Source: Terriglobia bacterium (lineage in GTDB: Bacteria; Acidobacteriota; Terriglobia; Terriglobales; Acidobacteriaceae). From it: a DNA stretch of 64,000 bases. The notes beneath the pieces were generated by a model. The model was not told the DNA's origin and did not search any database. It was given only the letters and a program-made list of their open reading frames with translations. Within the stretch, counting starts at the first letter, position 1. The number at the start of each line of letters is the position of its first letter. Below are positions 20,399-52,016 of the stretch, piece after piece. Both the position numbers and the translations under genes were made by a program. The stretch is from contig JAIQFO010000001.1 of assembly GCA_020073215.1 (NCBI GenBank), forward strand, positions 248,001 through 312,000. The letters are read 5' to 3'.

Positions 20399-20460
20399 GA
20401 GACGCGGCTTGCCGCGCCTCCGGCCGCAGAGGGAGACGGGGCAAGCCCCGTCTCTACAGC
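20399..20460. repeat. palindromic repeat, family E
   Basis: Two adjacent palindromes: GCGGCTTGCCGCG and GACGGGGCAAGCCCCGTC. A near copy occupies 47158-47220, where it runs into the 3' end of hpnG. Confidence 0.75.
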
Positions 20461-38205: not shown

Positions 38206-39678
38206 ATGCCTCTGAAAACACTGTTTTTGAACCCGCCTTCGTTTGAGAATTTCGATGGAGGCGCGGGCTCGCGCTGGCCTGCCACGCGCGAGATTGAATC
38301 GTACTGGTATCCGGTCTGGCTCGCCTATCCCACCGGAATGCTCGAGGGCGCGCGCTTGTTGGACGCCCCGCCTCACCACATCACGGCGGAAGAAACGATC
38401 CGTACCTGCAAGGACTATGAACTGCTCGTGCTGTTCACGAGCACGCCCGGGTTCCCCGGCGACGTCCGCATGGCCGAGGCCATCAAAGACAGCAATCCTC
38501 ATATCAAGATCGCTTTCGTCGGACCGCACGTCAGCGTGCTGCCCGAAAAGTCGTTGCTGGACGCGAAGGTGATCGACGTAGCCTGCCGCAAGGAATTCGA
38601 CTACTCCATCGTCGAATACGCGCAAGGCAAACCGATCGAAGACATTCTGGGGATTTCCTACCGCAAGAACGGCGGGGTCGTGCATAATCCCGACCGGCCG
38701 ACGATTCAGGATCTGGATTCCCTGCCGCATGTGACCGACGTATACCGGCGCGACTTGGATGTCCGCCGCTACAACGTGCCTTTCCTGCTCCACCCGTTCG
38801 TGGCCCTCTACACCTCGCGTGGATGCCCGGCGCAGTGCACCTTCTGCCTCTGGCCCCAGACGCTCAGCGGACACCCCTGGCGCAAACGCTCCAGCGACGA
38901 CGTAGCGCGCGAGATGGCCAAGGCGAAAGAATACTGGCCGTATGTGAAGGAATTTTTCTTCGACGACGACACTTTCAACCTGCAGAAGGCCCGCACCGTC
39001 GAGTTATGCTCCAAGTTGAAACCGCTGGGGCTGACTTGGTCCTGCACGTCGCGAGTCACCACCGACTTTGAAACCCTCAAGGCCATGAAAGAAGCCGGAT
39101 GCCGGCTCCTGATCGTGGGCTACGAATCGGGGGACCAGCAGATTCTGAAGAACATCAAGAAAGGCGCGACCGTCGAGCGCGCCCGCCAGTTCACGAAAGA
39201 CTGCCACAAACTGGGACTCGTGGTCCACGGAGATTTCATCCTCGGCCTGCCCGGAGAGAGTCGCGAGACCATCAAGAACACGATCAAATTTGCCAAGGAA
39301 CTCGACGTGGAGACGATCCAGGTTTCGGTGGCACATGCCTACCCTGGAACGGAACTGCACGAGTTCGCGATGAAAAATGGTTTTGTCACCAGCGAGTCGA
39401 AAATGGTGGACGATGGCGGACACCAGATGGTGCAGATCGAGTATCCCGGCCTGCCCGCCGCGGAAGTGCTCGAGGGGGTTCATCACTTTTACGATGAATA
39501 TTATTTCCGTCCCAAGGCCGCGTACCGCATTTTGAGAAAGGCCATGTTCGATGGCGGCGAACGCAAGCGCTTGTACAAAGAAGCGCGGGCCTTCTTGAAA
39601 CTGCGCGCGCAGCGCCACAAGTGGGTCAAGGAAAACCGCAAGGACGAAGCGCCTGCGCCGGAACCGGCCAAGGCGTGA
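38206..39678 (+). CDS. hpnJ: hopanoid-associated radical SAM protein HpnJ
   Basis: 490 residues. An N-terminal B12-binding-like domain (LFLNPPSFENFDGG, IAFVGPHVSVLPEKSL) precedes a radical SAM core whose 4Fe-4S cysteines are C207, C211 and C214 in SRGCPAQCTFCLWP. FILGLPGESRETI follows in the core. The family is linked to the cyclitol-ether ring of bacteriohopanetetrol head groups, after HpnI and HpnK act on the polar head; those two genes are not in the window. It faces away from the hpnE-D-C operon and is followed by two small DMT genes. Confidence 0.9.
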   Translation: MPLKTLFLNPPSFENFDGGAGSRWPATREIESYWYPVWLAYPTGMLEGARLLDAPPHHITAEETIRTCKDYELLVLFTSTPGFPGDVRMAEAIKDSNPHIKIAFVGPHVSVLPEKSLLDAKVIDVACRKEFDYSIVEYAQGKPIEDILGISYRKNGGVVHNPDRPTIQDLDSLPHVTDVYRRDLDVRRYNVPFLLHPFVALYTSRGCPAQCTFCLWPQTLSGHPWRKRSSDDVAREMAKAKEYWPYVKEFFFDDDTFNLQKARTVELCSKLKPLGLTWSCTSRVTTDFETLKAMKEAGCRLLIVGYESGDQQILKNIKKGATVERARQFTKDCHKLGLVVHGDFILGLPGESRETIKNTIKFAKELDVETIQVSVAHAYPGTELHEFAMKNGFVTSESKMVDDGGHQMVQIEYPGLPAAEVLEGVHHFYDEYYFRPKAAYRILRKAMFDGGERKRLYKEARAFLKLRAQRHKWVKENRKDEAPAPEPAKA

Positions 39679-41443: not shown

Positions 41444-42907
41444 CTAATGAAAGAGTTTCATCAATCCACGCGGGGCTAAATCGGAGACGAGAAAGCTGGG
41501 GCGTTTACCGCTGGCGAATCGTGCCACAGCTTCCGCCGCCAGATATCCGCTGCGCACCGCGCCCTCCATGGTGGCGGGCCAGCCGGTTGCGGTCCAATCG
41601 CCGGCGAGAAAGACTCGCGGCCATGCCGTATCGGGCTTGGGACGGTGCTGGTCGATTCCCGGGCGCGGCGAATAGGTTGCGTGCACTTCCTTGATCACGG
41701 TCGATTTCAGCAGTTTCGCTTCGCGCGCGCCGGGGAAAAACTCCTGCGCTTCTTTCATCGCCAGGTCGACAATTTCCGTCTTCGACTTTTCCACCAGACC
41801 GCGGGAGCAGCTCACGACCAACTCAACGTAGCTGCCGAGGCCGTTCTCGCAAGCTTCGTCGCTGTGAGCGTCGTTGTTCCGAACCTCAGTATTCCGGGCC
41901 TCAATGAGCCGCGATTTGTGAAACATCCACTGGATCGTTCGGTCGAGCAGCACGGCGTGATCGAGATCGCTGATCTGCCGGTCGAACCAGAGATGGATGC
42001 CGGTGATCGGTGAGGACGAGAACTGGCCTAGCGCGGCGGCCAGAGGCGCAGCCGACGGAGTGTCGGGCAACATGCGCGCGACACCATCAAAAGGGACCGC
42101 CAGAACCAGATAGTCGAATCTCTGTTCCTGCCCGTTCGTGGTCACATCTACGCCAAAGGCTTCCGAGCGGAACGATTCCACGCCGGCACGAAACTGGATC
42201 TCTCCGCCACGGGCGCGGATGTAGTCTCCGGCGGTGCCATACAGTTCGGTGAGGGGCACGGTTGGAATTCCCATGCGCCCGGCCGCGGCTGACTTAAGAA
42301 ACGACTCACGCACCACCTGGGCCGCGTAAGGGACCGAAACCCGATCGAGATCTTCGTTCAGGGCGCTGACCAGGATGGTTCTCCAGAAACGCTCGATGGC
42401 TTGCTCGGTTTGTCCGTGGCGTTTGAGCCAGTCGAGGAATGTCTCACCCTCGTCCGCTGGAATGGAAGGAGCGAGCGCCAGCATGGCGCGGCTGATGGCC
42501 ATCTTGTCGCGAAAGCTCAAACACTCGGCCCGGAGAAACGCCGGCGCGGTATGCAGCGGCGCCGGCAGCCATGACGGGGCGATCACCGATGCACGTCCTC
42601 CGGGCTCAAGGAAGGTCAGCTTCTCATACCAACGGATCTTGTCTTGCACTCCCGTGCGTTGATAGAAATCGAGCAGGTTGGTGCAGCAGCCGAGCAATAC
42701 GTGCTGGCAATTGTCCACAATTTCGCCGGTGCCAGGATGCTGATAAGAAGAGGCGCGCCCACCGAGATAGGGGCGGCGCTCAAACAGGGTGACGCGAAAC
42801 CCTGCTTCCGCCAGCGCGCATCCAGCGGCCAGACCGGCCAACCCGCCTCCAGCGATAGCGACGGTAGAAGGGTTTGTCGTGTTAGTGGAGATCGAGGGCG
42901 GCATCAC
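41444..42907 (-). CDS. hpnE: hydroxysqualene dehydroxylase HpnE
   Basis: 487 residues. FAD-binding amine-oxidase fold with VAIAGGGLAGLAAGCAL near residue 18 and C-terminal FLAGDWTATGWPATMEGAVRSG. It converts hydroxysqualene to squalene in the three-enzyme HpnC-D-E route. Its start overlaps the hpnD stop by four bases, and the gene order C, D, E is conventional. Confidence 0.94.
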   Translation of the reverse strand: MMPPSISTNTTNPSTVAIAGGGLAGLAAGCALAEAGFRVTLFERRPYLGGRASSYQHPGTGEIVDNCQHVLLGCCTNLLDFYQRTGVQDKIRWYEKLTFLEPGGRASVIAPSWLPAPLHTAPAFLRAECLSFRDKMAISRAMLALAPSIPADEGETFLDWLKRHGQTEQAIERFWRTILVSALNEDLDRVSVPYAAQVVRESFLKSAAAGRMGIPTVPLTELYGTAGDYIRARGGEIQFRAGVESFRSEAFGVDVTTNGQEQRFDYLVLAVPFDGVARMLPDTPSAAPLAAALGQFSSSPITGIHLWFDRQISDLDHAVLLDRTIQWMFHKSRLIEARNTEVRNNDAHSDEACENGLGSYVELVVSCSRGLVEKSKTEIVDLAMKEAQEFFPGAREAKLLKSTVIKEVHATYSPRPGIDQHRPKPDTAWPRVFLAGDWTATGWPATMEGAVRSGYLAAEAVARFASGKRPSFLVSDLAPRGLMKLFH

Positions 42908-43842
42908 AGCAGACGCTTCAGGATTCCTTTTCCCATGACCGAAAGTTTTTCCGGAACCGTTAACCGGACCCGCTCACTGAAGACGTCGTACTGGTTCGCC
43001 GCCATCTTTTCGAGCAAGCGGCGATAAATGGTGATCAAGACCCATAAGGCGGGCTGGCTGTCTTCATTCACCAGCGGGATCAGTTCTTCCCCGGAGCGGT
43101 AGCCGTCGCGCGCCCGATCCGCCTCCATCGCCAGCAGCGGACGGATGCAGGCAATGTCAACCTGCGGCGTGGCCAGATCGGCGGCCGAGAGTCCGTGCTG
43201 CGCGAGGTCCTCCTGCGGAAAATACACCCGGCCCATGGCGACGTCTTCTTTGACATCGCGAATGATGTTCGTAAGCTGAAAGGCGAGACCGCAGTGTTCG
43301 GCCAGCGACTCGGCGGCGGGATCGCGATACCCGAAAATCTTGATGCACACCAATCCAACCACCGACGCCACGCCGTAGCAATACTGGCGCAACTGTTCAA
43401 ACGTCTGGTAACGCGCAACCAGCGGCGCACCGGTGTAGGCTGGCTGCGCGTGATCGAGATCAGCAGCCGTGCCGTAGGCGAGTTGATCGAGAAGGCCAAC
43501 CGGAATCTGGTAGGTGCGCTGCGCATCGGTCAGCCCCAGCAGCACTGGATCGTCGGTTGGCTGTGCCGCCAATGCGCGGTGGACTTTATCGAGCCAGTCC
43601 GCCAGCCGGTTATGGCGATCCTCGGGGCTGAGCGTGGCGTCGTCGGTAATGTCGTCGCAGCGTCGCATGAAGGCGTACACCGCGCTCAACGCATTCCGTT
43701 TTCTCCGCGGAAGTACCGCAAATCCATAGTAAAAATTTTTGGCGGCGGAGCGGGCGATGCTCCGGCAGACGGAGTACGCCATATCGAGCTGGGAAGGGGT
43801 CGGAGAAAATTGCACGGGCGCATTTCCCGCGACCGTACTCAT
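42904..43842 (-). CDS. hpnD: presqualene diphosphate synthase HpnD
   Basis: 312 residues of the squalene/phytoene synthase superfamily. Two Asp-rich motifs bind Mg-diphosphate: MRRCDDITDD and LTNIIRDVKEDVAMGRVYFP. It joins two farnesyl diphosphates to presqualene diphosphate. Four-base overlaps with both hpnC upstream and hpnE downstream show tight translational coupling. Confidence 0.93.
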   Translation of the reverse strand: MSTVAGNAPVQFSPTPSQLDMAYSVCRSIARSAAKNFYYGFAVLPRRKRNALSAVYAFMRRCDDITDDATLSPEDRHNRLADWLDKVHRALAAQPTDDPVLLGLTDAQRTYQIPVGLLDQLAYGTAADLDHAQPAYTGAPLVARYQTFEQLRQYCYGVASVVGLVCIKIFGYRDPAAESLAEHCGLAFQLTNIIRDVKEDVAMGRVYFPQEDLAQHGLSAADLATPQVDIACIRPLLAMEADRARDGYRSGEELIPLVNEDSQPALWVLITIYRRLLEKMAANQYDVFSERVRLTVPEKLSVMGKGILKRLL

Positions 43843-44780
43843 CGGAGTTTCCCCAGCGCGGCACGGGCGACCAGGGCCAGCTTCCGCGTCCTGGAGATTG
43901 CGGGACGCCGGCCGAGCACGGCGTAATTCTGGCGCTCAATTGCGTTCAGGATTTCCTGTCCGCCGCGGCTGAAGAGTTCGATATCAATGGCCAGTTCGCG
44001 CTTAACATTCGCAATCAGCGGCAAACCTTGCCGAAACCATTCCCGGGCGCGTTCGACTTCAAACTTGATCATCTCGCGGAACGCGGAAGTGTTTTCACGG
44101 TCGCGGATCACGTTTTCGCTCACCCCGAAACGGCGCAGGTCTTCGAGGGGAAGATAAATTCGTCCTTTGGCAAAGTCCGCGCTCACGTCTTGCCAGAAGT
44201 TCGCGAGCTGCAACGCGGTGCAGGTGCAGTCGGAAAGCTGTTGGCGGTCGGAATCGCGATATCCGCAGAGGTACAGCACCAGGTGGCCGACCGGATTCGC
44301 CGAAAACTTACAGTAGCCAAGCAGATCGTTGAACGTTTCGTACCGGCTGACGTTTTGGTCCTGCCGGAAAGCAGTCAGCAAGTCGGCGAATTCATGTTTC
44401 GGAATTTCAAACTGGCGCACCGTTTCGGCGAGCGCGACAAATACGGGATGGCGGGGATGACCGTCGTAGCACGCGTTCAGCTCCGCCTCCCACTGCTCGA
44501 GCATCTGTAAAGATGCGGCGGTGTCGCCCACTTCGTCGCCCAGGTCGTCGGAGATGCGGCAATAGGCATAGACATTGAAGAAGTGCTGGCGCAGCCGCTC
44601 CGGAAGAAACCACGACGCAACTGAAAAATTCTCGTAGTGCGAGCGCGCCAGGCGGCGGCAATATTCCAGTGCCTCGGCTTCCGAAGGCGCGTGCTCGGGA
44701 ATGGCGTACTCAGGCGGCAGCGCACTCCAGGCGGAGGCGGGCGGCGCAGTCGAGGGATGGCTGGCAGCGGTTGTCATCAA
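43839..44780 (-). CDS. hpnC: hydroxysqualene synthase HpnC
   Basis: 313 residues. Squalene-synthase-like fold with YCRISDDLGDE and LANFWQDVSADFAKGRIYLP as metal-binding motifs; it converts presqualene diphosphate to hydroxysqualene. First of the three squalene genes, separated from the dehydrogenase genes by about 110 bases that hold a palindromic repeat. Confidence 0.93.
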   Translation of the reverse strand: MMTTAASHPSTAPPASAWSALPPEYAIPEHAPSEAEALEYCRRLARSHYENFSVASWFLPERLRQHFFNVYAYCRISDDLGDEVGDTAASLQMLEQWEAELNACYDGHPRHPVFVALAETVRQFEIPKHEFADLLTAFRQDQNVSRYETFNDLLGYCKFSANPVGHLVLYLCGYRDSDRQQLSDCTCTALQLANFWQDVSADFAKGRIYLPLEDLRRFGVSENVIRDRENTSAFREMIKFEVERAREWFRQGLPLIANVKRELAIDIELFSRGGQEILNAIERQNYAVLGRRPAISRTRKLALVARAALGKLR

Positions 44781-44811: not shown

Positions 44812-44862
44812 TGGAGAGCCGGGCGTCCTCGCCCGGCGGACGGGCGAGACGCCCGTCGCTCC
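44812..44862. repeat. palindromic repeat, family D copy
   Basis: Two adjacent hairpins: GCCGGGCG/CGCCCGGC and GGACGGGCG facing CGCCCGTC. Between hpnC and the first dehydrogenase gene. Confidence 0.75.
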
Positions 44863-44891
44863 ATCGTACGACTCATCACGCGATCACGACG

Positions 44892-45941
44892 CTAGTGACC
44901 CGGGATAATCGCGGTCTTGATATCGCCGTTGCGGTTCAGCATGTGGCGGAGCACATCCTGCAAACGCGAAAGCGGCGCTTCGCCGGTAATGTAGTCGTTG
45001 CCGCAAACTTTCTTCTCGGCAATCAAACCGAAGGCCCGGCGGACCGTCTCCGGCGTGTGATGAAAAGTCGCCTTCAACGTGATTTCCGAGTAATGCAGGC
45101 GGTTGGTGTCCAACTGCACCTTGGTTCCCGTGGCGCACCCGCCGAAGAAATTCACCGTGCCGCCCTTGCGAACCATCTGCACGGCCCACTCCCACGCTTC
45201 CGGGCGGCCCACGGCTTCGATCGCGACATCGGCGCCGCGCCTCTCCGGACTCAACTCGCGCACCGCCTCGACCGGATCTTTCACCTTGGTAATCTGCACC
45301 ACCTCGTGCGCGCCCTTCTTGCGCGCCAGGGAGACCTGCGAATCCCGCTTGACCACCGCAATCACATTGCAGCCGATGGCTTTCGCCACTTGTACAAACA
45401 TCAGACCAATCGGCCCGCCGCCAATCACCGCAACCGTGTCGCCGATCTCAACTCCGGTTTCATGCAGGCCCCGGAGAACGCAAGCCAGCGGTTCGGTCAT
45501 CGCGGCATCTTCGAAGGTCACATTCGAAGGCACGACGAGCATATTGGTTTCCACAATGCGGCGTGGAATCCGTATGTACTCGGCGTAGGCACCATTATTG
45601 AACAGCAGATCTTCGCAGAGGTTTAACTGGTGCTTGGAGCAATAGAAGCACATGCCACAGGGAGCTGAGTTGAGCGCGACTACGCGCATTCCCTTCTTGA
45701 AGCCGCGCACACCTTCCCCAACCTGCTCGATCGTGCCGGCCAGTTCATGCCCGAACAACGCCGGCGGCACGATCATGCGGGCGTGATAGCCCCGCTGATA
45801 CACCTTCAAGTCGGTGCCGCAGGTTAGCGCCACGTGGACCTTGACCAGAACTTCGCCTTCGCCCACCGGCGGGATTGGCACTCTTTCAATCTTGACGTCT
45901 TCTTTGCCGTACAGGACGGCAGCCGTCATCTTGCCAGTCAC
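44892..45941 (-). CDS. medium-chain zinc-dependent dehydrogenase in the hopanoid operon (1)
   Basis: 349 residues from a GTG at 45941 that overlaps the upstream dehydrogenase stop by four bases; an ATG at 45929 is possible. The catalytic zinc site includes ALTCGTDLKVY and FGHELAGTI. The structural zinc loop is CGMCFYCSKHQLNLC, and the Rossmann core has VAVIGGGPIGLMFVQVAKA. Resembles threonine/sorbitol dehydrogenase-like MDR proteins. Its place between hpnG and hpnC is the main clue to a role in hopanoid side-chain chemistry (inference). Confidence 0.85.
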   Translation of the reverse strand: MTGKMTAAVLYGKEDVKIERVPIPPVGEGEVLVKVHVALTCGTDLKVYQRGYHARMIVPPALFGHELAGTIEQVGEGVRGFKKGMRVVALNSAPCGMCFYCSKHQLNLCEDLLFNNGAYAEYIRIPRRIVETNMLVVPSNVTFEDAAMTEPLACVLRGLHETGVEIGDTVAVIGGGPIGLMFVQVAKAIGCNVIAVVKRDSQVSLARKKGAHEVVQITKVKDPVEAVRELSPERRGADVAIEAVGRPEAWEWAVQMVRKGGTVNFFGGCATGTKVQLDTNRLHYSEITLKATFHHTPETVRRAFGLIAEKKVCGNDYITGEAPLSRLQDVLRHMLNRNGDIKTAIIPGH

Positions 45942-47113
45942 AGTTGATGTCCTTCCCACGCGATGCACCCCATCACGCCAAAACCGGGCGTGCTGGGGGC
46001 CCCGCCGCTCCCCGGCTGGATGACGATTTTCATCGTGTCCGGTCGAGGATGGGCAGCCAGATTCAGCGCTTCTACACCGCTTTGCAGCGGGAAACGGTGG
46101 CTGACAAGCCGTTCCATGTCCATTTCACGGTTCATGACGAACCGCACCGACTCCTCCTGTAATTCCACTGACGCGCTGTAGGATCCAAGCAACGCCTTTT
46201 CGTCCATGCACACCGCAGCCGGATCAATCGTGACCTCGCCCCGTACCGTCTGCGCAAACAGCAATACCCGACCCCCCGGACGAGTCGCATCCATGGCAGG
46301 CCGGATCAGGCCGCTCCCGCCAACTGCTAGAATCACAGCGTCAGCCCCGCGTCCCTCGGTCATTCCGCGCACCGTTTGTCCGGCGTCAGCCTTGGAAGCG
46401 TCAATTGTAAGTGTTAGGCCGAAGCTACTAGCTATTGTAAGCCTCGCCGGATACAAATCGGAAGTAATCACCCGAGCCCCCGCCCGCTTGGCCAAAGTCG
46501 CGAGGATTAGACCAATCGGACCTTGTCCGATCACCAGCACGGTCTCCCCCGCCTGCAGACGAAGGGTTTCAATTCCTTTGAGGCATGTGTTCACCGGTTC
46601 GACAAAACAGGCCTGCTCGAAGCTGACGTCGTCCGGGATGCGCACGGTTCCCTTCTCGACAATCCAGTCCATCACCCGAACGTATTCCGCGAATCCTCCG
46701 CCCGAGGGTTCGAACCCGGCCGTGCATCCGACCTTCTTGTACGTGGCGCACTGCGCGAAGGTTTTCTGGCTGCAGTAATAACACTCTCGGCACGGGATGT
46801 GATGAAACACCACCACGCGTTCGCCGACGCTGAACTTTCGAACACCCTCCCCCACCTTCGCAACGACACCCGCGGTTTCGTGACCAAAAATACGCGGCGC
46901 GGAGTGGGAGCCGGTCGAAATCTTCTTCAGATCGGTGCCGCAGATTCCACAGGTGTGGACCCGAACCAAAATCTCCCCGGGTCCGATTTCCGGCACCGGC
47001 ACTTCTTCCAGGCGGACGTCGTTCACACCGCGATACACGGCCGCCCGCATGGTGGAAGGAATTTCGCGCCTCTCGCTTTCAACCGCTAATGTTGAAGGTC
47101 GTGCAATTGCCAT
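45938..47113 (-). CDS. medium-chain zinc-dependent dehydrogenase in the hopanoid operon (2)
   Basis: 391 residues, starting 19 bases after the hpnG stop. Zinc residues: TCGICGTDLKKI, FGHETAGVV and CRECYYCSQKTFAQC. Cofactor motif VLVIGQGPIGLILATLAKRAG. Paralogous to the next dehydrogenase, with which it overlaps by four bases. The pair may act as one heteromeric or sequential system. HpnG makes ribosylhopane, whose reduction to bacteriohopanetetrol needs a reductase I cannot assign to a known gene; these are candidates. Confidence 0.85.
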   Translation of the reverse strand: MAIARPSTLAVESERREIPSTMRAAVYRGVNDVRLEEVPVPEIGPGEILVRVHTCGICGTDLKKISTGSHSAPRIFGHETAGVVAKVGEGVRKFSVGERVVVFHHIPCRECYYCSQKTFAQCATYKKVGCTAGFEPSGGGFAEYVRVMDWIVEKGTVRIPDDVSFEQACFVEPVNTCLKGIETLRLQAGETVLVIGQGPIGLILATLAKRAGARVITSDLYPARLTIASSFGLTLTIDASKADAGQTVRGMTEGRGADAVILAVGGSGLIRPAMDATRPGGRVLLFAQTVRGEVTIDPAAVCMDEKALLGSYSASVELQEESVRFVMNREMDMERLVSHRFPLQSGVEALNLAAHPRPDTMKIVIQPGSGGAPSTPGFGVMGCIAWEGHQL

Positions 47114-47132
47114 AGCAGACTCTATTCTTTAC

Positions 47133-47915
47133 CTATCGATTCCTGATGCCAACTCCCGTAGAGACGCGGCTTGCCGCGTCTCCGGCGGCGGAGGAGACGG
47201 GGCAAGCCCCGTCTCTACAGGAAGAAGAACTTAAAGCCGGTCGCTCCAGATAACTCGCAAGCGCGGCGCAAAGAGCACGGCTTGCCTTTGAGCTGTTCCG
47301 CGCCAAAGCAATCGTAGTCCCCCAGAGCCACGGGCGCAGCGCTACATGACACGCAAACCTCACGGAGTGAAAACTCCCGTCGTCCGCCACAAAACGATCC
47401 ATTGCCGGCAGGCAAAAATCGGCGGCGTCGGAGATGGCTTTTAAAGCTCCAAACTCCACTCCCCGCGCCTGCGCGCCTTGCGCCACGGCCGCGGCTTCCA
47501 TGTCTACCGCGTTCGCGTCATAAGCTTTGCGCAAGCGAATTTTCTGTTCCTTGCCCGCCACGGCCGCCGAACTCACCAGAATTCCCTCACCCGAGCCGAC
47601 GTCTGTCCGAACGCCGTCGGCAGCGTTGATCACCATGCGCGGCTCAAACACCTGCCTGACATGCAGGGACGCATCCAGCGCTCCGGCAAAACCAACCGAA
47701 ATCACCCGCACCGGGCTCACTTCCCGAATCACCGCTTCAGTTGCGCGGCGCGCTGCTTCCGCCCCAATGCCGCCGCACAGCAACGCCGCGTCGCCATTTT
47801 CAAAGAGACGATAGCGCCGCCCGCCGTGTTCGATCATTCTGACCTTCCAGCTTCGGATTAGCGGTTCCACCTCTCGCTCCATCGCGGCAATGATCGCGAT
47901 CTTCATTTCAGACAT
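47133..47915 (-). CDS. hpnG: hopanoid-associated nucleoside phosphorylase HpnG
   Basis: 260 residues from the ATG at 47915, overlapping the hpnA stop by eight bases. MTA/SAH-nucleosidase-like core with IAIIAAMEREVEPLI, VISVGFAGAL and NAVDMEAAAVAQ. HpnG removes adenine from adenosylhopane. The last 30 or so residues (SCRDGACPVSSAAGDAAS) are encoded by a palindromic repeat and do not belong to the family, so the natural C-terminus has been extended. Confidence 0.9.
   Translation of the reverse strand: MSEMKIAIIAAMEREVEPLIRSWKVRMIEHGGRRYRLFENGDAALLCGGIGAEAARRATEAVIREVSPVRVISVGFAGALDASLHVRQVFEPRMVINAADGVRTDVGSGEGILVSSAAVAGKEQKIRLRKAYDANAVDMEAAAVAQGAQARGVEFGALKAISDAADFCLPAMDRFVADDGSFHSVRFACHVALRPWLWGTTIALARNSSKASRALCAALASYLERPALSSSSCRDGACPVSSAAGDAASRVSTGVGIRNR
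47158..47220. repeat. palindromic repeat, family E copy, inside the hpnG 3' end
   Basis: Near copy of the 20399-20460 element, with GCGGCTTGCCGCG and GACGGGGCAAGCCCCGTC. It lies within the last codons of hpnG. Confidence 0.8.
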
Positions 47916-48948
47916 ATCCGTTGCTGCGGAACCAATCCACCGACCGCCGCAGCGCACCCTCTACTGGAACCATCCGCCAGCCCAGTTCCCGTTCTGCTTT
48001 TGCCGAACTCACAAACATCATCTTCCGCCCCATGCGCACCGCGTCAATCGTGGCCCGCGGCTCGCGGCCCAGAAGCCGACCGGTCACCATTTCGTCCACC
48101 ACCCCAGTCGCCAGCGCAAAAAAGTATGGCAGTTTCACGCTCGGCGACTTCAAACCCGTGATGGCGGCCAGCCGGTCCAGAATCTGCTTCAGCGTAAGAT
48201 TCTCTCCGCCCAGAATGTAGCGCTCGCCCGATCTTCCCTTCTCCAGCGCCTGAATATGGCCGCGCGCGCACTCGGTCGCATCCACCAGGTTCAAGCCGGT
48301 TTCCACGTACGCCGGAAACTTTCGCTTCAGGAAGTCCACGACGATTCGCCCGGTCGGAGTCGGCTTGAGATCACGCTCCCCAATCGGCGTCGTGGGATTC
48401 ACCACCACCACATCCGCTCCTGATCTCGCGGCCTTGATGGCCACTTGCTCGGCCATGAACTTCGAACGCTTGTAGTGTCCGATCATGTCCGCCAGCGCCA
48501 CTGGGCTTTCTTCGTCCGCCAGGCTGGCGAACTCCGCTCGGCTTGGACGGGCGAGCGCACCCGTCCCTACACGAGCGCTGCGGTTCGAAGTGAAGCCCAC
48601 GGTCGCTACGCTGGACGTATACACAATACGCCGTACGCCTTGTTTCCGCGCCGCCTCGAGCAACGAACGGGTGCCCTCGACGTTCGAGCGATACATTTCG
48701 TCGGGATCGCGCACCCACAACCTATAGTCCGCCGCCACGTGAAATAGCGCGTGGCAGCCGAAAAGCGACTTCTCCATCGAAGCCGGGTCGCGCAAATCAC
48801 CGATGACCCGATCGGCGTTCAGGCCCACCAGGTTCCGCAGATCGCTGGTCGGCCGCACTAGCAGACGCAACTCCGCGCCCTGTTCCGCCAGAACGCGCGC
48901 AACATGGCTGCCTAAGAATCCGGTAGCGCCGGTAACGAAAGCCAGCAT
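47908..48948 (-). CDS. hpnA: hopanoid-associated sugar epimerase HpnA
   Basis: 346 residues, extended SDR: AFVTGATGFLGSHVARVL at the N-terminus, YTSSVATVGF, MIGHYKRSKFMAEQVA (YxxxK) and VNPTTPIGERDLKPTPTG. The order hpnA-hpnG and eight-base overlap are typical of hopanoid operons. Residues about 123-141 (RSARVGTGALARPSRAEF) interrupt the usual GFTSN to LADEE passage and are encoded by a palindromic repeat. The frame is kept, so the protein may still fold with a surface loop. Confidence 0.9.
   Translation of the reverse strand: MLAFVTGATGFLGSHVARVLAEQGAELRLLVRPTSDLRNLVGLNADRVIGDLRDPASMEKSLFGCHALFHVAADYRLWVRDPDEMYRSNVEGTRSLLEAARKQGVRRIVYTSSVATVGFTSNRSARVGTGALARPSRAEFASLADEESPVALADMIGHYKRSKFMAEQVAIKAARSGADVVVVNPTTPIGERDLKPTPTGRIVVDFLKRKFPAYVETGLNLVDATECARGHIQALEKGRSGERYILGGENLTLKQILDRLAAITGLKSPSVKLPYFFALATGVVDEMVTGRLLGREPRATIDAVRMGRKMMFVSSAKAERELGWRMVPVEGALRRSVDWFRSNGYV
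48534..48577. repeat. palindromic repeat, family D copy, inside hpnA
   Basis: Shares CGCTCGGCTTGGACGGGCGA and ACACGAGCG with the intergenic copy at 18024-18066, with small differences in the centre. Confidence 0.85.
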
Positions 48949-48951
48949 TTA

Positions 48952-49054
48952 GCAGTTAGCACTTAGCGTTTAGTTCACGCTGGGTGCGCGAGCGAGAGGC
49001 GAAAGCTTCCACTGGCCCAGGCTAGCTGAGTGCTAAATGCTAAGTGCTAACTGC
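48952..49054. repeat. long inverted repeat filling the shc-hpnA gap
   Basis: Arms of 22 bases at 48952-48973 and 49033-49054 pair with one mismatch; both are built on AGTTAGCACTTAGC. The right arm includes the shc stop codon, and the left arm ends four bases from the hpnA ATG. Confidence 0.85.
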
Positions 49055-51014
49055 CGCCCTTTTCCGCCATCACCTTCGAATACGTCGTAAGCGCGATGAG
49101 TGGAAAATACTGGCGATATAGGTGGTACATCAGATAGAACACGCGCGGAAAGCCGGTTCCGGTGTAGAAAGGCTCGTCCCACGAACCGTCTCTCTTCTGC
49201 GTGCGCAAAAGATACGCCATGCCGCGGGTCACGCATTCGCTGCGCGTGTCGCCCACGGCCAGCAGTCCCATAATTGCCCACGCCGTCTGCGAAGCTGTAC
49301 TGTCGCCCTGCCCGCGCAGGTTGGGATCGTCATACGACCCTACCGTCTCGCCCCAGCCCCCGTCGGCATTCTGCACCGATCGCAGCCACTCCGCCGCCTG
49401 CTGGATCATGGGGTCGTTGGGGTCTACGGCCATCGCTTCCAAGCCGCGCAATACCAGCATCGTGCCGTAGATGTAGTTCACGCCCCAGCGCCCGAACCAG
49501 CTTCCGTCCGGCTCCTGCTCCTGGCGAATAAACTTGATTGCCCGCTGCACCGCTGGATGGTTCTGGTCGTATCCATAAGCCGCAAGACACTCTAGGATGC
49601 GGCCCGTGATGTCAACCGTTGCCGGATCGAGCATGGCGTTGTGATCGGCGAAGGGGACGTGCTGGAAGACCATGCGGTCGTTGTCTTTGTCGAACGAAGC
49701 CCAGCCTCCATTCTTGCACTGCATGGACAAAACCCAATCAATCGCCCGCTGCACCGACTCGCTCTGATAGCGTCCGTTCGGATGTTCGACACGGCTCAGC
49801 GCCAGGCAGACCATAGCCGTGTCGTCGACATCGGGATAGAACTCGTTGTTGAACTCGAAATACCAGCCGCCCGGTTCGCCCTTCGCATTCTTGATTTTCC
49901 AGTCTCCAGGCTTGCGCACCTGCTTCTGCAACATCCAGTCGGCGCACTTCACCAGGCGCGGATCGGTCGCCGGGACCCCGGCCTCGCCCAGGGCAAACAG
50001 CGCGTATGCCGTATCCCAAACCGGAGACAGGCAGGGCTGCATGCGGAAGGTGTCGCCCTCTTCAATTCCCAGCTTCTCAAACTCATCCAGCGCCCGAATC
50101 ACCTGGGGGTCGTCGACCGAATAGCCCAGGCAGCGCATGGCGATGATGGAGTTCATGATCGACGGGAAAATCCCTGCCAACCCATCGCTCATCTCGAAGC
50201 GCTGCAGCATCCACTTCTCGGCTTTTCTGAGAGCGAGCGAGCGCAGCGGACGAATGTGCACACGCTCGGCCCAGTGGGTAATCCGATCCAGCACGAGGAA
50301 AAAATTGCGCCAGGAAATCAGCTTCTTCGCCCAGTGCAGATGCATGCGCGACTTGTCGCGCCCACCCACAAAAAGTTCTTCCACTCCCATTTCGTCGGGA
50401 ATCTTCTTGAACGGCTTTTTGGCATAGCAGATCGAAAGCGGCACCAGGATAGCGCGCGACCACGAAGAAATTTCGTAGATGTTGAACCAGAACCAGTTCG
50501 GGAAGAGCACGATCTCCGGCGGAACCGCGGGAACCGCGTCGTAATCGTACTGCCCAAAAAAACAGAGATAGATCTTGGTGAAGGTATTGACTTCGGTCAC
50601 GCCGCCCATGGCAAGGATCTTCTTGCGGGCGCGCGCCAGTGCTGGATGATCCGCCGTGAAACCAGCCAGCTTCAGTCCGAAATAAGCTTTCACCGAAGCG
50701 CCGATGTGGGAAGGGCCGCCGGCGTGGGTGCTCCAGCCCCCGTCTTCGTTCTGGTGCTTAAGAATGTAGCGAGCGGCCTTGTCGAAGCGTTCCTGGCTGC
50801 CGGTGCCGAGAAGCGCGTGGAGCAGGATGTAATCGGATTCGAGGGTGGTGTCGGCCTCGAGTTCTCCGCACCAGTACCCCTCTTCGTGCTGCCGCGAGAA
50901 AAGATATTTGCGCGCCGCATCGACGGCTACCGCGACCCGGCTCTCCAGGTCGTCAATCTTTCCGAATCGCATCTGCGGTGCAGAGGCCGAACTATAAGGG
51001 GAGGATTCTTCCAT
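49047..51014 (-). CDS. shc: squalene-hopene cyclase
   Basis: Membrane-bound cyclase (HpnF) turning squalene into hopene/hopanol. 655 residues, usual length. The catalytic acid motif DVDDTA is at residues 395-400. QW-type repeats are visible (QNEDGGWSTHAGG, QEQDGSWFG-type, QNADGGWGETVGS, QKRDGSWDE). The ATG at 51014 directly follows the ispH stop, so isoprenoid supply and cyclisation are co-expressed. Confidence 0.96.
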   Translation of the reverse strand: MEESSPYSSASAPQMRFGKIDDLESRVAVAVDAARKYLFSRQHEEGYWCGELEADTTLESDYILLHALLGTGSQERFDKAARYILKHQNEDGGWSTHAGGPSHIGASVKAYFGLKLAGFTADHPALARARKKILAMGGVTEVNTFTKIYLCFFGQYDYDAVPAVPPEIVLFPNWFWFNIYEISSWSRAILVPLSICYAKKPFKKIPDEMGVEELFVGGRDKSRMHLHWAKKLISWRNFFLVLDRITHWAERVHIRPLRSLALRKAEKWMLQRFEMSDGLAGIFPSIMNSIIAMRCLGYSVDDPQVIRALDEFEKLGIEEGDTFRMQPCLSPVWDTAYALFALGEAGVPATDPRLVKCADWMLQKQVRKPGDWKIKNAKGEPGGWYFEFNNEFYPDVDDTAMVCLALSRVEHPNGRYQSESVQRAIDWVLSMQCKNGGWASFDKDNDRMVFQHVPFADHNAMLDPATVDITGRILECLAAYGYDQNHPAVQRAIKFIRQEQEPDGSWFGRWGVNYIYGTMLVLRGLEAMAVDPNDPMIQQAAEWLRSVQNADGGWGETVGSYDDPNLRGQGDSTASQTAWAIMGLLAVGDTRSECVTRGMAYLLRTQKRDGSWDEPFYTGTGFPRVFYLMYHLYRQYFPLIALTTYSKVMAEKGGS

Positions 51015-52016
51015 TTAGGACTCCACGGCGATGGCCGGGGCCGCGGCAATCGTTTCGACGATCTCCGGCGGCAATCCAAAGCGAACATTTTCCGGCATGA
51101 TTTCCAATTCCCGCACGTCGCCAAAGCCCTTTCCCGCCAGGTACTCGACCACTTCCTGCACCAGATGTTCCGGAGCCGAAGCTCCCGCGGTCAGGGCTAC
51201 CGTCCTCACGCCATTTAACCACTGCGGCTGAATATTGCGGCAGTCATCGATTAGATGCGCCTCGGTGCCCAAACTTCGAGCCACTTCCACCAACCGCTTG
51301 GAATTTGAACTGTTATCGGAGCCAACCACCAGCAGCAAATCGGCGTCGGAGGCTACGTGCTTTACGGCAACTTGCCGGTTTTCCGTGGCATAGCAAATAT
51401 CCTGCGCCGCCGGGCCTTTGATATTCGGGAATCGCTTTCGCAGCGCGGCGATAATGTCGCGGGTCTCATCGAGGCTGAGCGTCGTCTGGGTCAGGTATGC
51501 CACCCGGTTGGGGTCGGGCAAGGTCACCGACGCCACCTCCGCGGGCGAACCGACGACCTGAGTCACTGCGGGAGCCTCGCCGAGCGTGCCAATGACTTCG
51601 TCGTGATCGCGGTGACCGATCAGGATCAGCGAATAGCCTTCCTTGGCGAACTTCACCGCCTCCACGTGCACCTTGGTGACCAGCGGACACGTGGCATCGA
51701 TCACCCGCAGCTTCCGCAGTTTGCTGCGGTCGCGCACTTCCGGAGAAACGCCGTGGGCGCTGTAGATGACGCGCTCGCCCTCCGGCACTTCATCCACACC
51801 GTCGACAAAAATTGCGCCCTTCTGCTGCAATTCTTCCACTACAAAGCGGTTGTGGACAATTTCCTTGCGCACATAAATCGGCGGCCCAAACGCCTCCAGC
51901 GCAATCCGGACGATGTCAATCGCCCGCACCACCCCGGCGCAGAATCCCCGCGGCTTTAACAACAATAGGGTCTTCGTGTGTAAATTCCCGGTCTCAGACA
52001 AGCTGCAACCCCCCAC
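51015..52016 (-). CDS. ispH: 4-hydroxy-3-methylbut-2-enyl diphosphate reductase
   Basis: Last step of the MEP pathway, producing IPP and DMAPP. Iron-sulfur cysteines lie in KPRGFCAGVVRAIDIV, DATCPLVTKVH and QDICYATENRQ. TQTTLSLDET and VVGSDNSSNSKRLVEVA are family signatures. The longest frame starts at a GTG at 52016 (333 residues). A TTG at 52001 has a GGGGGG stretch at seven bases and could be the true start. First gene of the hopanoid operon. Confidence 0.95.
   Translation of the reverse strand: MGGCSLSETGNLHTKTLLLLKPRGFCAGVVRAIDIVRIALEAFGPPIYVRKEIVHNRFVVEELQQKGAIFVDGVDEVPEGERVIYSAHGVSPEVRDRSKLRKLRVIDATCPLVTKVHVEAVKFAKEGYSLILIGHRDHDEVIGTLGEAPAVTQVVGSPAEVASVTLPDPNRVAYLTQTTLSLDETRDIIAALRKRFPNIKGPAAQDICYATENRQVAVKHVASDADLLLVVGSDNSSNSKRLVEVARSLGTEAHLIDDCRNIQPQWLNGVRTVALTAGASAPEHLVQEVVEYLAGKGFGDVRELEIMPENVRFGLPPEIVETIAAAPAIAVES

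What the first reader, a model, noticed from the sequence alone, without database searches (positions are those of the whole stretch)
44892..47915. Two zinc dehydrogenases embedded after hpnG: candidates for the ribosylhopane reductase
Seen: hpnA-hpnG and two MDR dehydrogenase genes are linked on one strand by overlaps and a 19-base gap, with hpnC-D-E following. Known: HpnG removes adenine from adenosylhopane and the product must be reduced to give bacteriohopanetetrol; to my knowledge no enzyme has been assigned. Inference: one or both dehydrogenases carry out that reduction or a later head-group oxidation.
Basis: partly seen in the sequence, partly recalled or inferred. Interest (0 to 1): 0.72.

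Follow-up and report, generated by a model that had tools for sequence, protein, structure and literature searches.

The report
Dehydrogenase pair in acidobacterial hopanoid operon
Two neighbouring zinc dehydrogenases sit inside the hopanoid-lipid gene cluster of one group of Acidobacteriota and look dedicated to hopanoid chemistry, but related bacteria with hopanoid genes lack them, so they are candidates and not the proven missing enzyme that finishes bacteriohopanetetrol.

Summary
ispH-shc-hpnA-hpnG-MDR1-MDR2-hpnC-hpnD-hpnE run on the minus strand; both MDRs keep all zinc ligands. The placement is not chance: of 197 sampled Acidobacteriota genomes 34 have MDR1, and all 34 have shc. MDR1 is next behind hpnG (23) or hpnA (10) in 33 of 34; MDR2 is next before hpnC (22) or hpnD (10) in 32 of 34, also in 13 genomes where the two genes have parted. 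The hopanoid-linked copies form one MDR1 and one MDR2 clade, drawn from a tandem MDR family found in many phyla, mostly in genomes without a detected shc (39 of 45). By sequence MDR1 is NAD-type and MDR2 NADP-type.

The inference is partly supported. MDR2 could reduce ribosylhopane with NADPH; MDR1 looks like an NAD-linked oxidase. Twenty other sampled genomes carry shc and hpnH without either orthologue (15 of them hold a more distant, unlinked MDR2-family gene), so a general-reductase role is doubtful. HpnA (53 of 55 shc genomes, NADP-type) is a strong rival. Eleven genomes with the pair lack hpnJ, against a cyclitol-ether role. The genes are already in print as ug1/ug2, function unknown (Sinninghe Damsté 2017). 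My reading: a lineage-specific hopanoid side-chain redox pair.

The parts
51015..52016 (-). ispH (4-hydroxy-3-methylbut-2-enyl diphosphate reductase)
   Evidence: NCBIfam equivalog over cut-off
49047..51014 (-). shc/hpnF squalene-hopene cyclase
   Evidence: TIGR01507 800 bits, cut-off 431
47908..48948 (-). hpnA, extended SDR; Arg after beta-2 (NADP-type by recalled rule), Ser-Tyr-Lys set
   Evidence: TIGR03466 481 bits; R32, S112, Y159, K163 in 70 of 70 sequences aligned
47133..47915 (-). hpnG, nucleosidase/phosphorylase-like; ATG 47915 overlaps the end of hpnA
   Evidence: TIGR03468 best hit, 89 bits, under cut-off 187; PNP_UDP_1
47154..47222 (.). palindromic repeat (30-nt arms) inside the 3' end of hpnG; a second copy of the element at 20400-20453
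45938..47113 (-). MDR1 (position of 'ug1' of Sinninghe Damsté 2017): Zn-dependent MDR dehydrogenase, NAD-type; catalytic Zn C58 H78 E79 E172, structural Zn C108 C111 C114 C122, D219. Conserved part starts at Met22 (47050)
44892..45941 (-). MDR2 (position of 'ug2', before hpnC): Zn-dependent MDR dehydrogenase, NADP-type; start GTG 45941 gives a 4-base overlap with MDR1 (ORF opens at 45968)
44812..44863 (.). inverted repeat (16-nt arms) in the MDR2-hpnC gap
43839..44780 (-). hpnC
   Evidence: TIGR03464 348 bits over cut-off
42904..43842 (-). hpnD (best family match, under its cut-off)
   Evidence: TIGR03465 230 of 279 bits
41444..42907 (-). hpnE
   Evidence: TIGR03467 492 bits over cut-off
38206..39678 (+). 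hpnJ, on the opposite strand
   Evidence: TIGR03471 779 bits over cut-off

Best explanation
MDR1 and MDR2 are a dedicated pair of zinc-dependent dehydrogenases that work on the C35 side chain of hopanoids in one lineage of Acidobacteriota. Shown by computation: members of a tandem MDR family found in many phyla, mostly without hopanoid genes, entered the hopanoid operons (one clade for each gene); the two genes have since stayed with hpnA/hpnG and hpnC/hpnD respectively; MDR1 has an NAD-type and MDR2 an NADP-type cofactor site by sequence; both keep all zinc ligands. Inferred: HpnH and HpnG give ribosylhopane, whose ring-open form carries a C35 aldehyde; MDR2 uses NADPH to reduce a carbonyl of this side chain (the C35 aldehyde, giving BHT, or a side-chain ketone), while MDR1 uses NAD+ to oxidise a side-chain hydroxyl. 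The pair may therefore oxidise and re-reduce the side chain and not only carry out the one reduction.
For: 34 of 34 genomes with an MDR1 orthologue have shc, against 55 of 197 overall. By family: all 5 MDR1 families fall among the 13 families with shc out of at least 64 (labels seen), chance at most 1.7e-4 if families were independent, which they are not fully. MDR1 is next behind hpnG or hpnA in 33 of 34, MDR2 next before hpnC or hpnD in 32 of 34; in all 13 genomes where the two genes have parted each kept its own hopanoid neighbour (the window itself). Tree: hopanoid-linked MDR1 66 of 66 monophyletic, support 1.0; hopanoid-linked MDR2 68 plus two, support 0.993. Cofactor residue: MDR1 acidic in 66 of 66, MDR2 non-acidic in 67 of 68. 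In G007 MDR1, MDR2, hpnA and hpnG are all undetected while shc, hpnH and hpnJ are present.
Against: No biochemistry; substrate not shown; cofactor rule recalled. 20 sampled shc+ hpnH+ genomes do without the orthologues. Non-hopanoid pairs of Acidobacteriota share the active-site motifs ([STA]YS in MDR1, [FY]H[HYM] in MDR2), also in families where no shc was found (f33, f43, G117), so the ancestral substrate was probably not a hopanoid and could still be used. G117 has an MDR2 of the hopanoid clade without shc or hpnH. In G059 the pair is not linked to hopanoid genes. The G007 case may be an assembly gap. Much of the co-occurrence is shared ancestry (22 of 34 genomes are in families f1 and f2).
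Confidence: 0.55

Rival explanations
1. One reading: MDR2 (or MDR1) is the ribosylhopane reductase that makes BHT in these bacteria.
For: NADP-type site in MDR2; position behind hpnA-hpnG; family of aldehyde, polyol and ketose dehydrogenases; enzyme still unassigned in 2025. 15 of the 20 shc+ hpnH+ genomes without orthologues do hold a more distant MDR2-family gene (f30 at 45-48% identity, f45 and G176 at 35-39%; placed in the MDR2 family for those put in the tree).
Against: 20 sampled genomes in 8 families have shc and hpnH but no orthologue. Five of them (G028, G053, G063, G081, G105) show no MDR2-family member at E 1e-40: nothing in G028 and G063, and in G053, G081, G105 only a gene that matches MDR1 better (only the G105 gene was put in the tree). 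In the four f45 genomes checked the MDR2-family gene is NAD-type. PMC5462960 says that Chloracidobacterium thermophilum makes BHT and lacks ug2. One reductase would not need two MDRs with different cofactors.
Confidence: 0.22
2. HpnA is the ribosylhopane reductase in Acidobacteriota and MDR1/MDR2 only modify the side chain afterwards, for example inverting a hydroxyl by oxidation and re-reduction.
For: HpnA is over cut-off in 53 of 55 shc genomes and in 0 of 9 genomes without shc over cut-off that were tested (two weaker matches there, 239 and 264 bits). It is NADP-type with Ser-Tyr-Lys in 70 of 70 aligned. In 14 of the 20 shc+ hpnH+ genomes without the pair it lies in a shc-hpnH-hpnA-hpnG row. 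Proposed in PMC5462960.
Against: G053 has shc-hpnH-hpnG and no HpnA match. 6 of 48 hpnH-bearing Alphaproteobacteria lack hpnA (PMC12583986); [quoted passage not shown]
Confidence: 0.3
3. The pair keeps its ancestral, non-hopanoid small-molecule substrate and rides in the operon by inertia or shared regulation.
For: The MDR2 family is widespread without a detected shc (39 of 45 genomes), and active-site motifs are largely shared with non-hopanoid pairs.
Against: One clade each, kept beside hopanoid genes also after the two genes parted and after hpnG left the cluster; long stem branch of hopanoid MDR1 (0.42).
Confidence: 0.15
4. MDR2 serves the squalene part of the operon (hpnC-hpnD-hpnE).
For: MDR2 is next before hpnC or hpnD in 32 of 34 genomes, also where MDR1 lies elsewhere.
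Against: The functions of HpnC, HpnD and HpnE in squalene formation were established by expressing the three genes in E. coli (as told in PMC5462960), which leaves no step open.
Confidence: 0.06
5. The pair helps HpnJ make the cyclitol ether head group.
For: hpnJ lies close by in the window; MDR1's best NCBIfam model is scyllo-inosose 3-dehydrogenase (172.7 bits, far under the 450 cut-off).
Against: 11 of 34 genomes with the pair have no hpnJ match at E 1e-80, and 7 genomes outside family f1 (five f30, G028, G176) have hpnJ over cut-off without the pair.
Confidence: 0.03

Closest known systems
ug1 and ug2 of the acidobacterial hopanoid clusters (Sinninghe Damsté et al. 2017, PMC5462960; passages and section 17 seen)
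   Same: ug1 follows hpnA-hpnG and ug2 precedes hpnC-hpnD-hpnE, as MDR1 and MDR2 do; ug2 is described as often annotated as a Zn-binding alcohol dehydrogenase of about 350 aa, in SD1 and SD3 but not C. thermophilum.
   Different: The passages seen call both 'unknown function'; the zinc class of ug1, the NAD/NADP difference, their paralogy and the wider tandem family are not in them. Identity of ug1/ug2 with MDR1/MDR2 rests on position; figure and supplement not seen.
Polyol/ketose dehydrogenases (PDB 1e3j, 1pl6), L-threonine 3-dehydrogenases (2dfv, 2dq4) and the uncharacterised Sinorhizobium dehydrogenase 4ej6/4ejm
   Same: Same fold (TM 0.74-0.88 by query length for these entries), MDR domains.
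   Different: 26-30% identity; no NCBIfam cut-off reached. The top structural hit, 4ej6/4ejm, has no assigned function.
Tandem MDR pairs of Nitrospirota, Eremiobacterota, Bathyarchaeota and others (among L123-L202)
   Same: One member falls in the MDR1 and one in the MDR2 family.
   Different: No hpn genes found beside them, and mostly no shc detected in the genome.

Membership tests
Zn-dependent medium-chain dehydrogenase (MDR) superfamily | ADH_N (PF08240) and ADH_zinc_N (PF00107) domains over gathering score | tested here: met
   both proteins
Zn-dependent medium-chain dehydrogenase (MDR) superfamily | catalytic Zn ligands Cys, His-Glu, Glu and structural Cys4 | tested here: met
   invariant in the 33 MDR1 and 31 MDR2 sequences scored
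Characterised MDR enzymes (TDH, IolM, idonate, galactitol-P dehydrogenase and others) | NCBIfam cut-off | tested here: not met
   best MDR1 172.7 of 450, MDR2 168.4 of 458 bits
Ribosylhopane reductase | present wherever ribosylhopane is turned into BHT | tested here: inconclusive
   20 shc+ hpnH+ genomes without orthologues, but their BHT was not measured here and 15 of them hold a more distant MDR2-family gene
Ribosylhopane reductase | NADPH-type cofactor site (NADPH need in Methylobacterium extract recalled; of Bodlenner 2015 only the title was seen) | tested here: inconclusive
   met by sequence for MDR2, not for MDR1; rule recalled, no binding data
Ribosylhopane reductase | turnover of ribosylhopane | not testable with these tools
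   needs protein and substrate
Hopanoid biosynthesis cluster gene | conserved linkage to hpn genes and co-occurrence with shc | tested here: met

The most novel reading that the evidence does not exclude
A two-enzyme, two-cofactor module: MDR1 (NAD+) oxidises and MDR2 (NADPH) reduces the hopanoid side chain so that the flow is driven one way, setting a lineage-specific stereochemistry or oxidation level of bacteriohopanepolyols and including, or bypassing, the unassigned ribosylhopane reduction.
Probability: 0.2. Interest if true: 0.75.

Novelty: new variant of a known kind. Interest (0 to 1): 0.5.

Why it matters
The step from ribosylhopane to bacteriohopanetetrol still has no assigned enzyme (PMC12583986, 2025, passages), although BHT and its relatives are widely used bacterial biomarkers. 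The pair, together with HpnA, gives three concrete knock-out targets, and the comparison suggests which could be general and which lineage-specific. It could also explain lineage-specific hopanoid head groups in a soil phylum.

Tried and rejected
Cyclitol-ether role: rejected, hpnJ and the pair do not go together. Strict dependence on hpnG: rejected, ten f27 genomes keep hpnA-MDR1-MDR2 without hpnG in the cluster; HpnG-like proteins lie elsewhere in nine of the ten. MDR-MDR fusion suspected: artefact of my gene caller, separate genes. 5-deoxyribose salvage as ancestral function (ribosylhopane is a 5-substituted 5-deoxyribose; class II aldolase next to MDR2 in L158, Pfam, and its homologues by clustering in L152, L167, L198; DeoC/LacD aldolase next to an MDR1-type gene in L019, Pfam, homologues in L020, L120, L122 by clustering): not supported, a nucleosidase was found in 1 of 71 non-hopanoid loci scanned (L203, about 8 kb from the pair, and fetched because of that hit). 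Contexts of the non-hopanoid pairs that I scanned (dxs and NAD kinase in f33, prephenate dehydratase in f45, cupin, FeoB, ResB, aldolase, 2-oxoacid dehydrogenase elsewhere) show no common theme. Structures predicted from 13 and 14 sequences (pLDDT 82 and 88) only confirm the MDR fold. Promoter-like sites are at chance (1 against 1.1) and terminator-like sites within it (7 against 4.6, sd 2.6).

Completeness of the 46 genomes is not given, many are MAGs, and the threshold was E 1e-30. Orthologue tiers were set at a gap in score: MDR1 393 bits and more against 224 and less, MDR2 398 and more against 308 and less. 'Next to' means the next gene among my reference genes; the gaps between match ends are at most 218 bases except 768 in G074 (hpnG to MDR1). 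The tree sets hold three contigs twice (L159, L163, L178).
Full report
OBSERVATION. The window is a stretch of an acidobacterial genome (G000:C14, 5.6 Mb assembly); among the named loci a very close cluster is that of a bog Acidobacteriaceae MAG (L188, MDR1 90% and MDR2 94% identical). On the minus strand ispH, shc, hpnA, hpnG, MDR1, MDR2, hpnC, hpnD and hpnE follow one another. The finding's coordinates run from the hpnG start codon (47915) to the MDR2 stop (44892). hpnG overlaps hpnA by 8 bases, a 19-base gap separates hpnG and MDR1, and MDR2 most likely starts at GTG 45941, overlapping the end of MDR1 by 4 bases. Both MDR proteins carry the two MDR Pfam domains over cut-off and reach no NCBIfam cut-off. 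The genome holds 16 and 19 matches to the two MDR domains, so two side by side inside a nine-gene hopanoid run needs an explanation.

CO-OCCURRENCE. I searched the same 197 sampled genomes of the phylum. shc is over cut-off in 54, plus one fragmented copy in G148; 55 in all. MDR1 orthologues (393 bits and more, 51% identity and more; next hits 224 bits and less) occur in 34 genomes, all among the 55. MDR2 orthologues (398 bits and more; next 308) occur in the same 34 and in G117, which has no shc or hpnH. By family that is 5 of at least 64 families, all within the 13 with shc: chance at most 1.7e-4 if families were independent. 21 shc genomes lack both genes. In one of them (G007) hpnA and hpnG are undetected too, a loss or an assembly gap. 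The other 20, in eight families (f24, f25, f30, f39, f45, f46, f54, f63), have hpnH.

GENE ORDER. In the 34 genomes (33 plus the window) MDR1 is next behind hpnG in 23, next behind hpnA in 10 (all of the f27 genomes, with no hpnG between), and unlinked in 1 (G059). MDR2 is next before hpnC in 22, hpnD in 10, and neither in 2 (G059; G194, where the contig ends about 1.4 kb after MDR2). In 13 genomes MDR1 and MDR2 are apart; in all 13 MDR1 stays behind hpnG and MDR2 before hpnC. This double retention is the strongest evidence that each gene serves the hopanoid pathway. The exception, L153, is a 6-kb contig of a genome that has shc.

ORIGIN. In a tree of 262 MDR sequences hopanoid-linked MDR1 is one clade (66 of 66, support 1.0) and hopanoid-linked MDR2 is one clade (68 plus L153 and the G117 gene, support 0.993) (the G059 genes were counted as hopanoid-linked because the genome has shc). 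The two families are paralogues. Tandem pairs with one member in each occur in Nitrospirota, Eremiobacterota, Latescibacterota, Planctomycetota, Armatimonadota, Bathyarchaeota and others; counted by hand, 22 of 45 loci outside the hopanoid clade have the MDR1-family partner within 0.5 kb on the same strand. In 39 of these 45 genomes no shc was detected (7 of 46 with shc, one of them the L153 genome; completeness not given). The pair family is thus wider than its hopanoid use, and a single recruitment is the simplest reading. In the non-hopanoid pairs of Acidobacteriota the active-site motifs are largely the same ([STA]YS in MDR1; Phe/Tyr-His-His/Tyr/Met in MDR2), which counts against a wholly new type of substrate.

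MECHANISM. All zinc ligands are invariant in the 33 and 31 orthologues scored. At the end of the second Rossmann strand MDR1 has Asp or Glu in 66 of 66 and MDR2 a non-acidic residue in 67 of 68 hopanoid-linked sequences, mostly followed by Lys/Arg/Asn and Arg/His; by the usual rule (recalled, not tested here) MDR1 uses NAD and MDR2 NADP. HpnA has Arg at the matching place and Ser, Tyr and Lys of the SDR set in 70 of 70 aligned. The NADPH need of the Methylobacterium extract is recalled; of Bodlenner 2015 I saw only the title in a reference list. So MDR2 and HpnA fit a reduction and MDR1 an oxidation. The predicted structures are ordinary MDR folds; the top structural hit is an uncharacterised Sinorhizobium dehydrogenase (4ej6/4ejm), followed closely by threonine, butanediol, ketose and polyol dehydrogenases.

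If MDR1 or MDR2 were the general ribosylhopane reductase, the 20 shc+ hpnH+ genomes without them would need another enzyme. In 14 of the 20 the genes read shc-hpnH-hpnA-hpnG (positions; eight of these clusters viewed); in the five f30 genomes they are scattered, and G053 has no HpnA match. HpnA is over cut-off in 53 of 55 shc genomes and in none of nine tested genomes without shc over cut-off (two weaker matches there). G028, G053, G063, G081 and G105 show none at E 1e-40. HpnA is not universal either: absent in 6 of 48 hpnH-bearing Alphaproteobacteria (PMC12583986) and undetected in G053.

OTHER ROLES. hpnJ is undetected in 11 of the 34 genomes with the pair and present in seven without it outside family f1, so the cyclitol ether is not the purpose. 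A squalene role for MDR2 is unlikely because HpnC, HpnD and HpnE account for the known steps (PMC5462960).

PRIOR ART. Sinninghe Damsté et al. 2017 (PMC5462960; passages and section 17 seen) already report ug1 behind hpnA-hpnG and ug2, often annotated as a Zn-binding alcohol dehydrogenase, before hpnC, function unknown, and suggest HpnA for the ribosylhopane step. Eight searches listed no paper whose title or abstract start assigns the enzyme; only PMC5462960 and PMC12583986 were opened, both in part. The library holds only open-licence papers.

VERDICT. Observation confirmed; interpretation partly supported. The pair is best described as a lineage-specific hopanoid side-chain redox pair; MDR2 remains a fair candidate for ribosylhopane reduction in this lineage, MDR1 a poor one.

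Noticed in passing
47154-47222 and 20400-20453: Palindromic GC-rich repeat element in two places of the window; one copy lies inside the 3' end of hpnG (6 matches against 0 in shuffles). A different inverted repeat lies in the MDR2-hpnC gap at 44812-44863.
   Followed up: partly
G000:C75:74688-75641 (L041, L061): hpnH has left the hopanoid run in this genome and lies on another contig; G022, G074 and G194 also have hpnH on a different contig from shc, while the other 18 of 22 genomes of family f1 have both on one contig.
   Followed up: partly
L025, L027, L028, L039, L062, L102-L105 (family f27): In nine of ten f27 clusters MDR2 is followed by hpnD with no hpnC detected, and all ten lack hpnG in the cluster; an HpnG-like nucleosidase lies elsewhere in nine of the ten genomes (none found in G187).
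   Followed up: partly
L044 (G053): shc-hpnH-hpnG cluster followed by an FMN-dependent dehydrogenase, HMG-CoA reductase and mevalonate-pathway genes; no HpnA match at E 1e-70 in the genome.
   Followed up: no
L124, L125, L130, L132, L136, L146, L161, L176: A small protein (about 160-190 aa; cupin domain in the two scanned) recurs near the non-hopanoid MDR2-family gene in several phyla.
   Followed up: no
window 47908-48948: HpnA matches the sterol-demethylase protein SdmB model at 208 bits (under its 600-bit cut-off), a hint of a triterpenoid substrate in place of a sugar.
   Followed up: no
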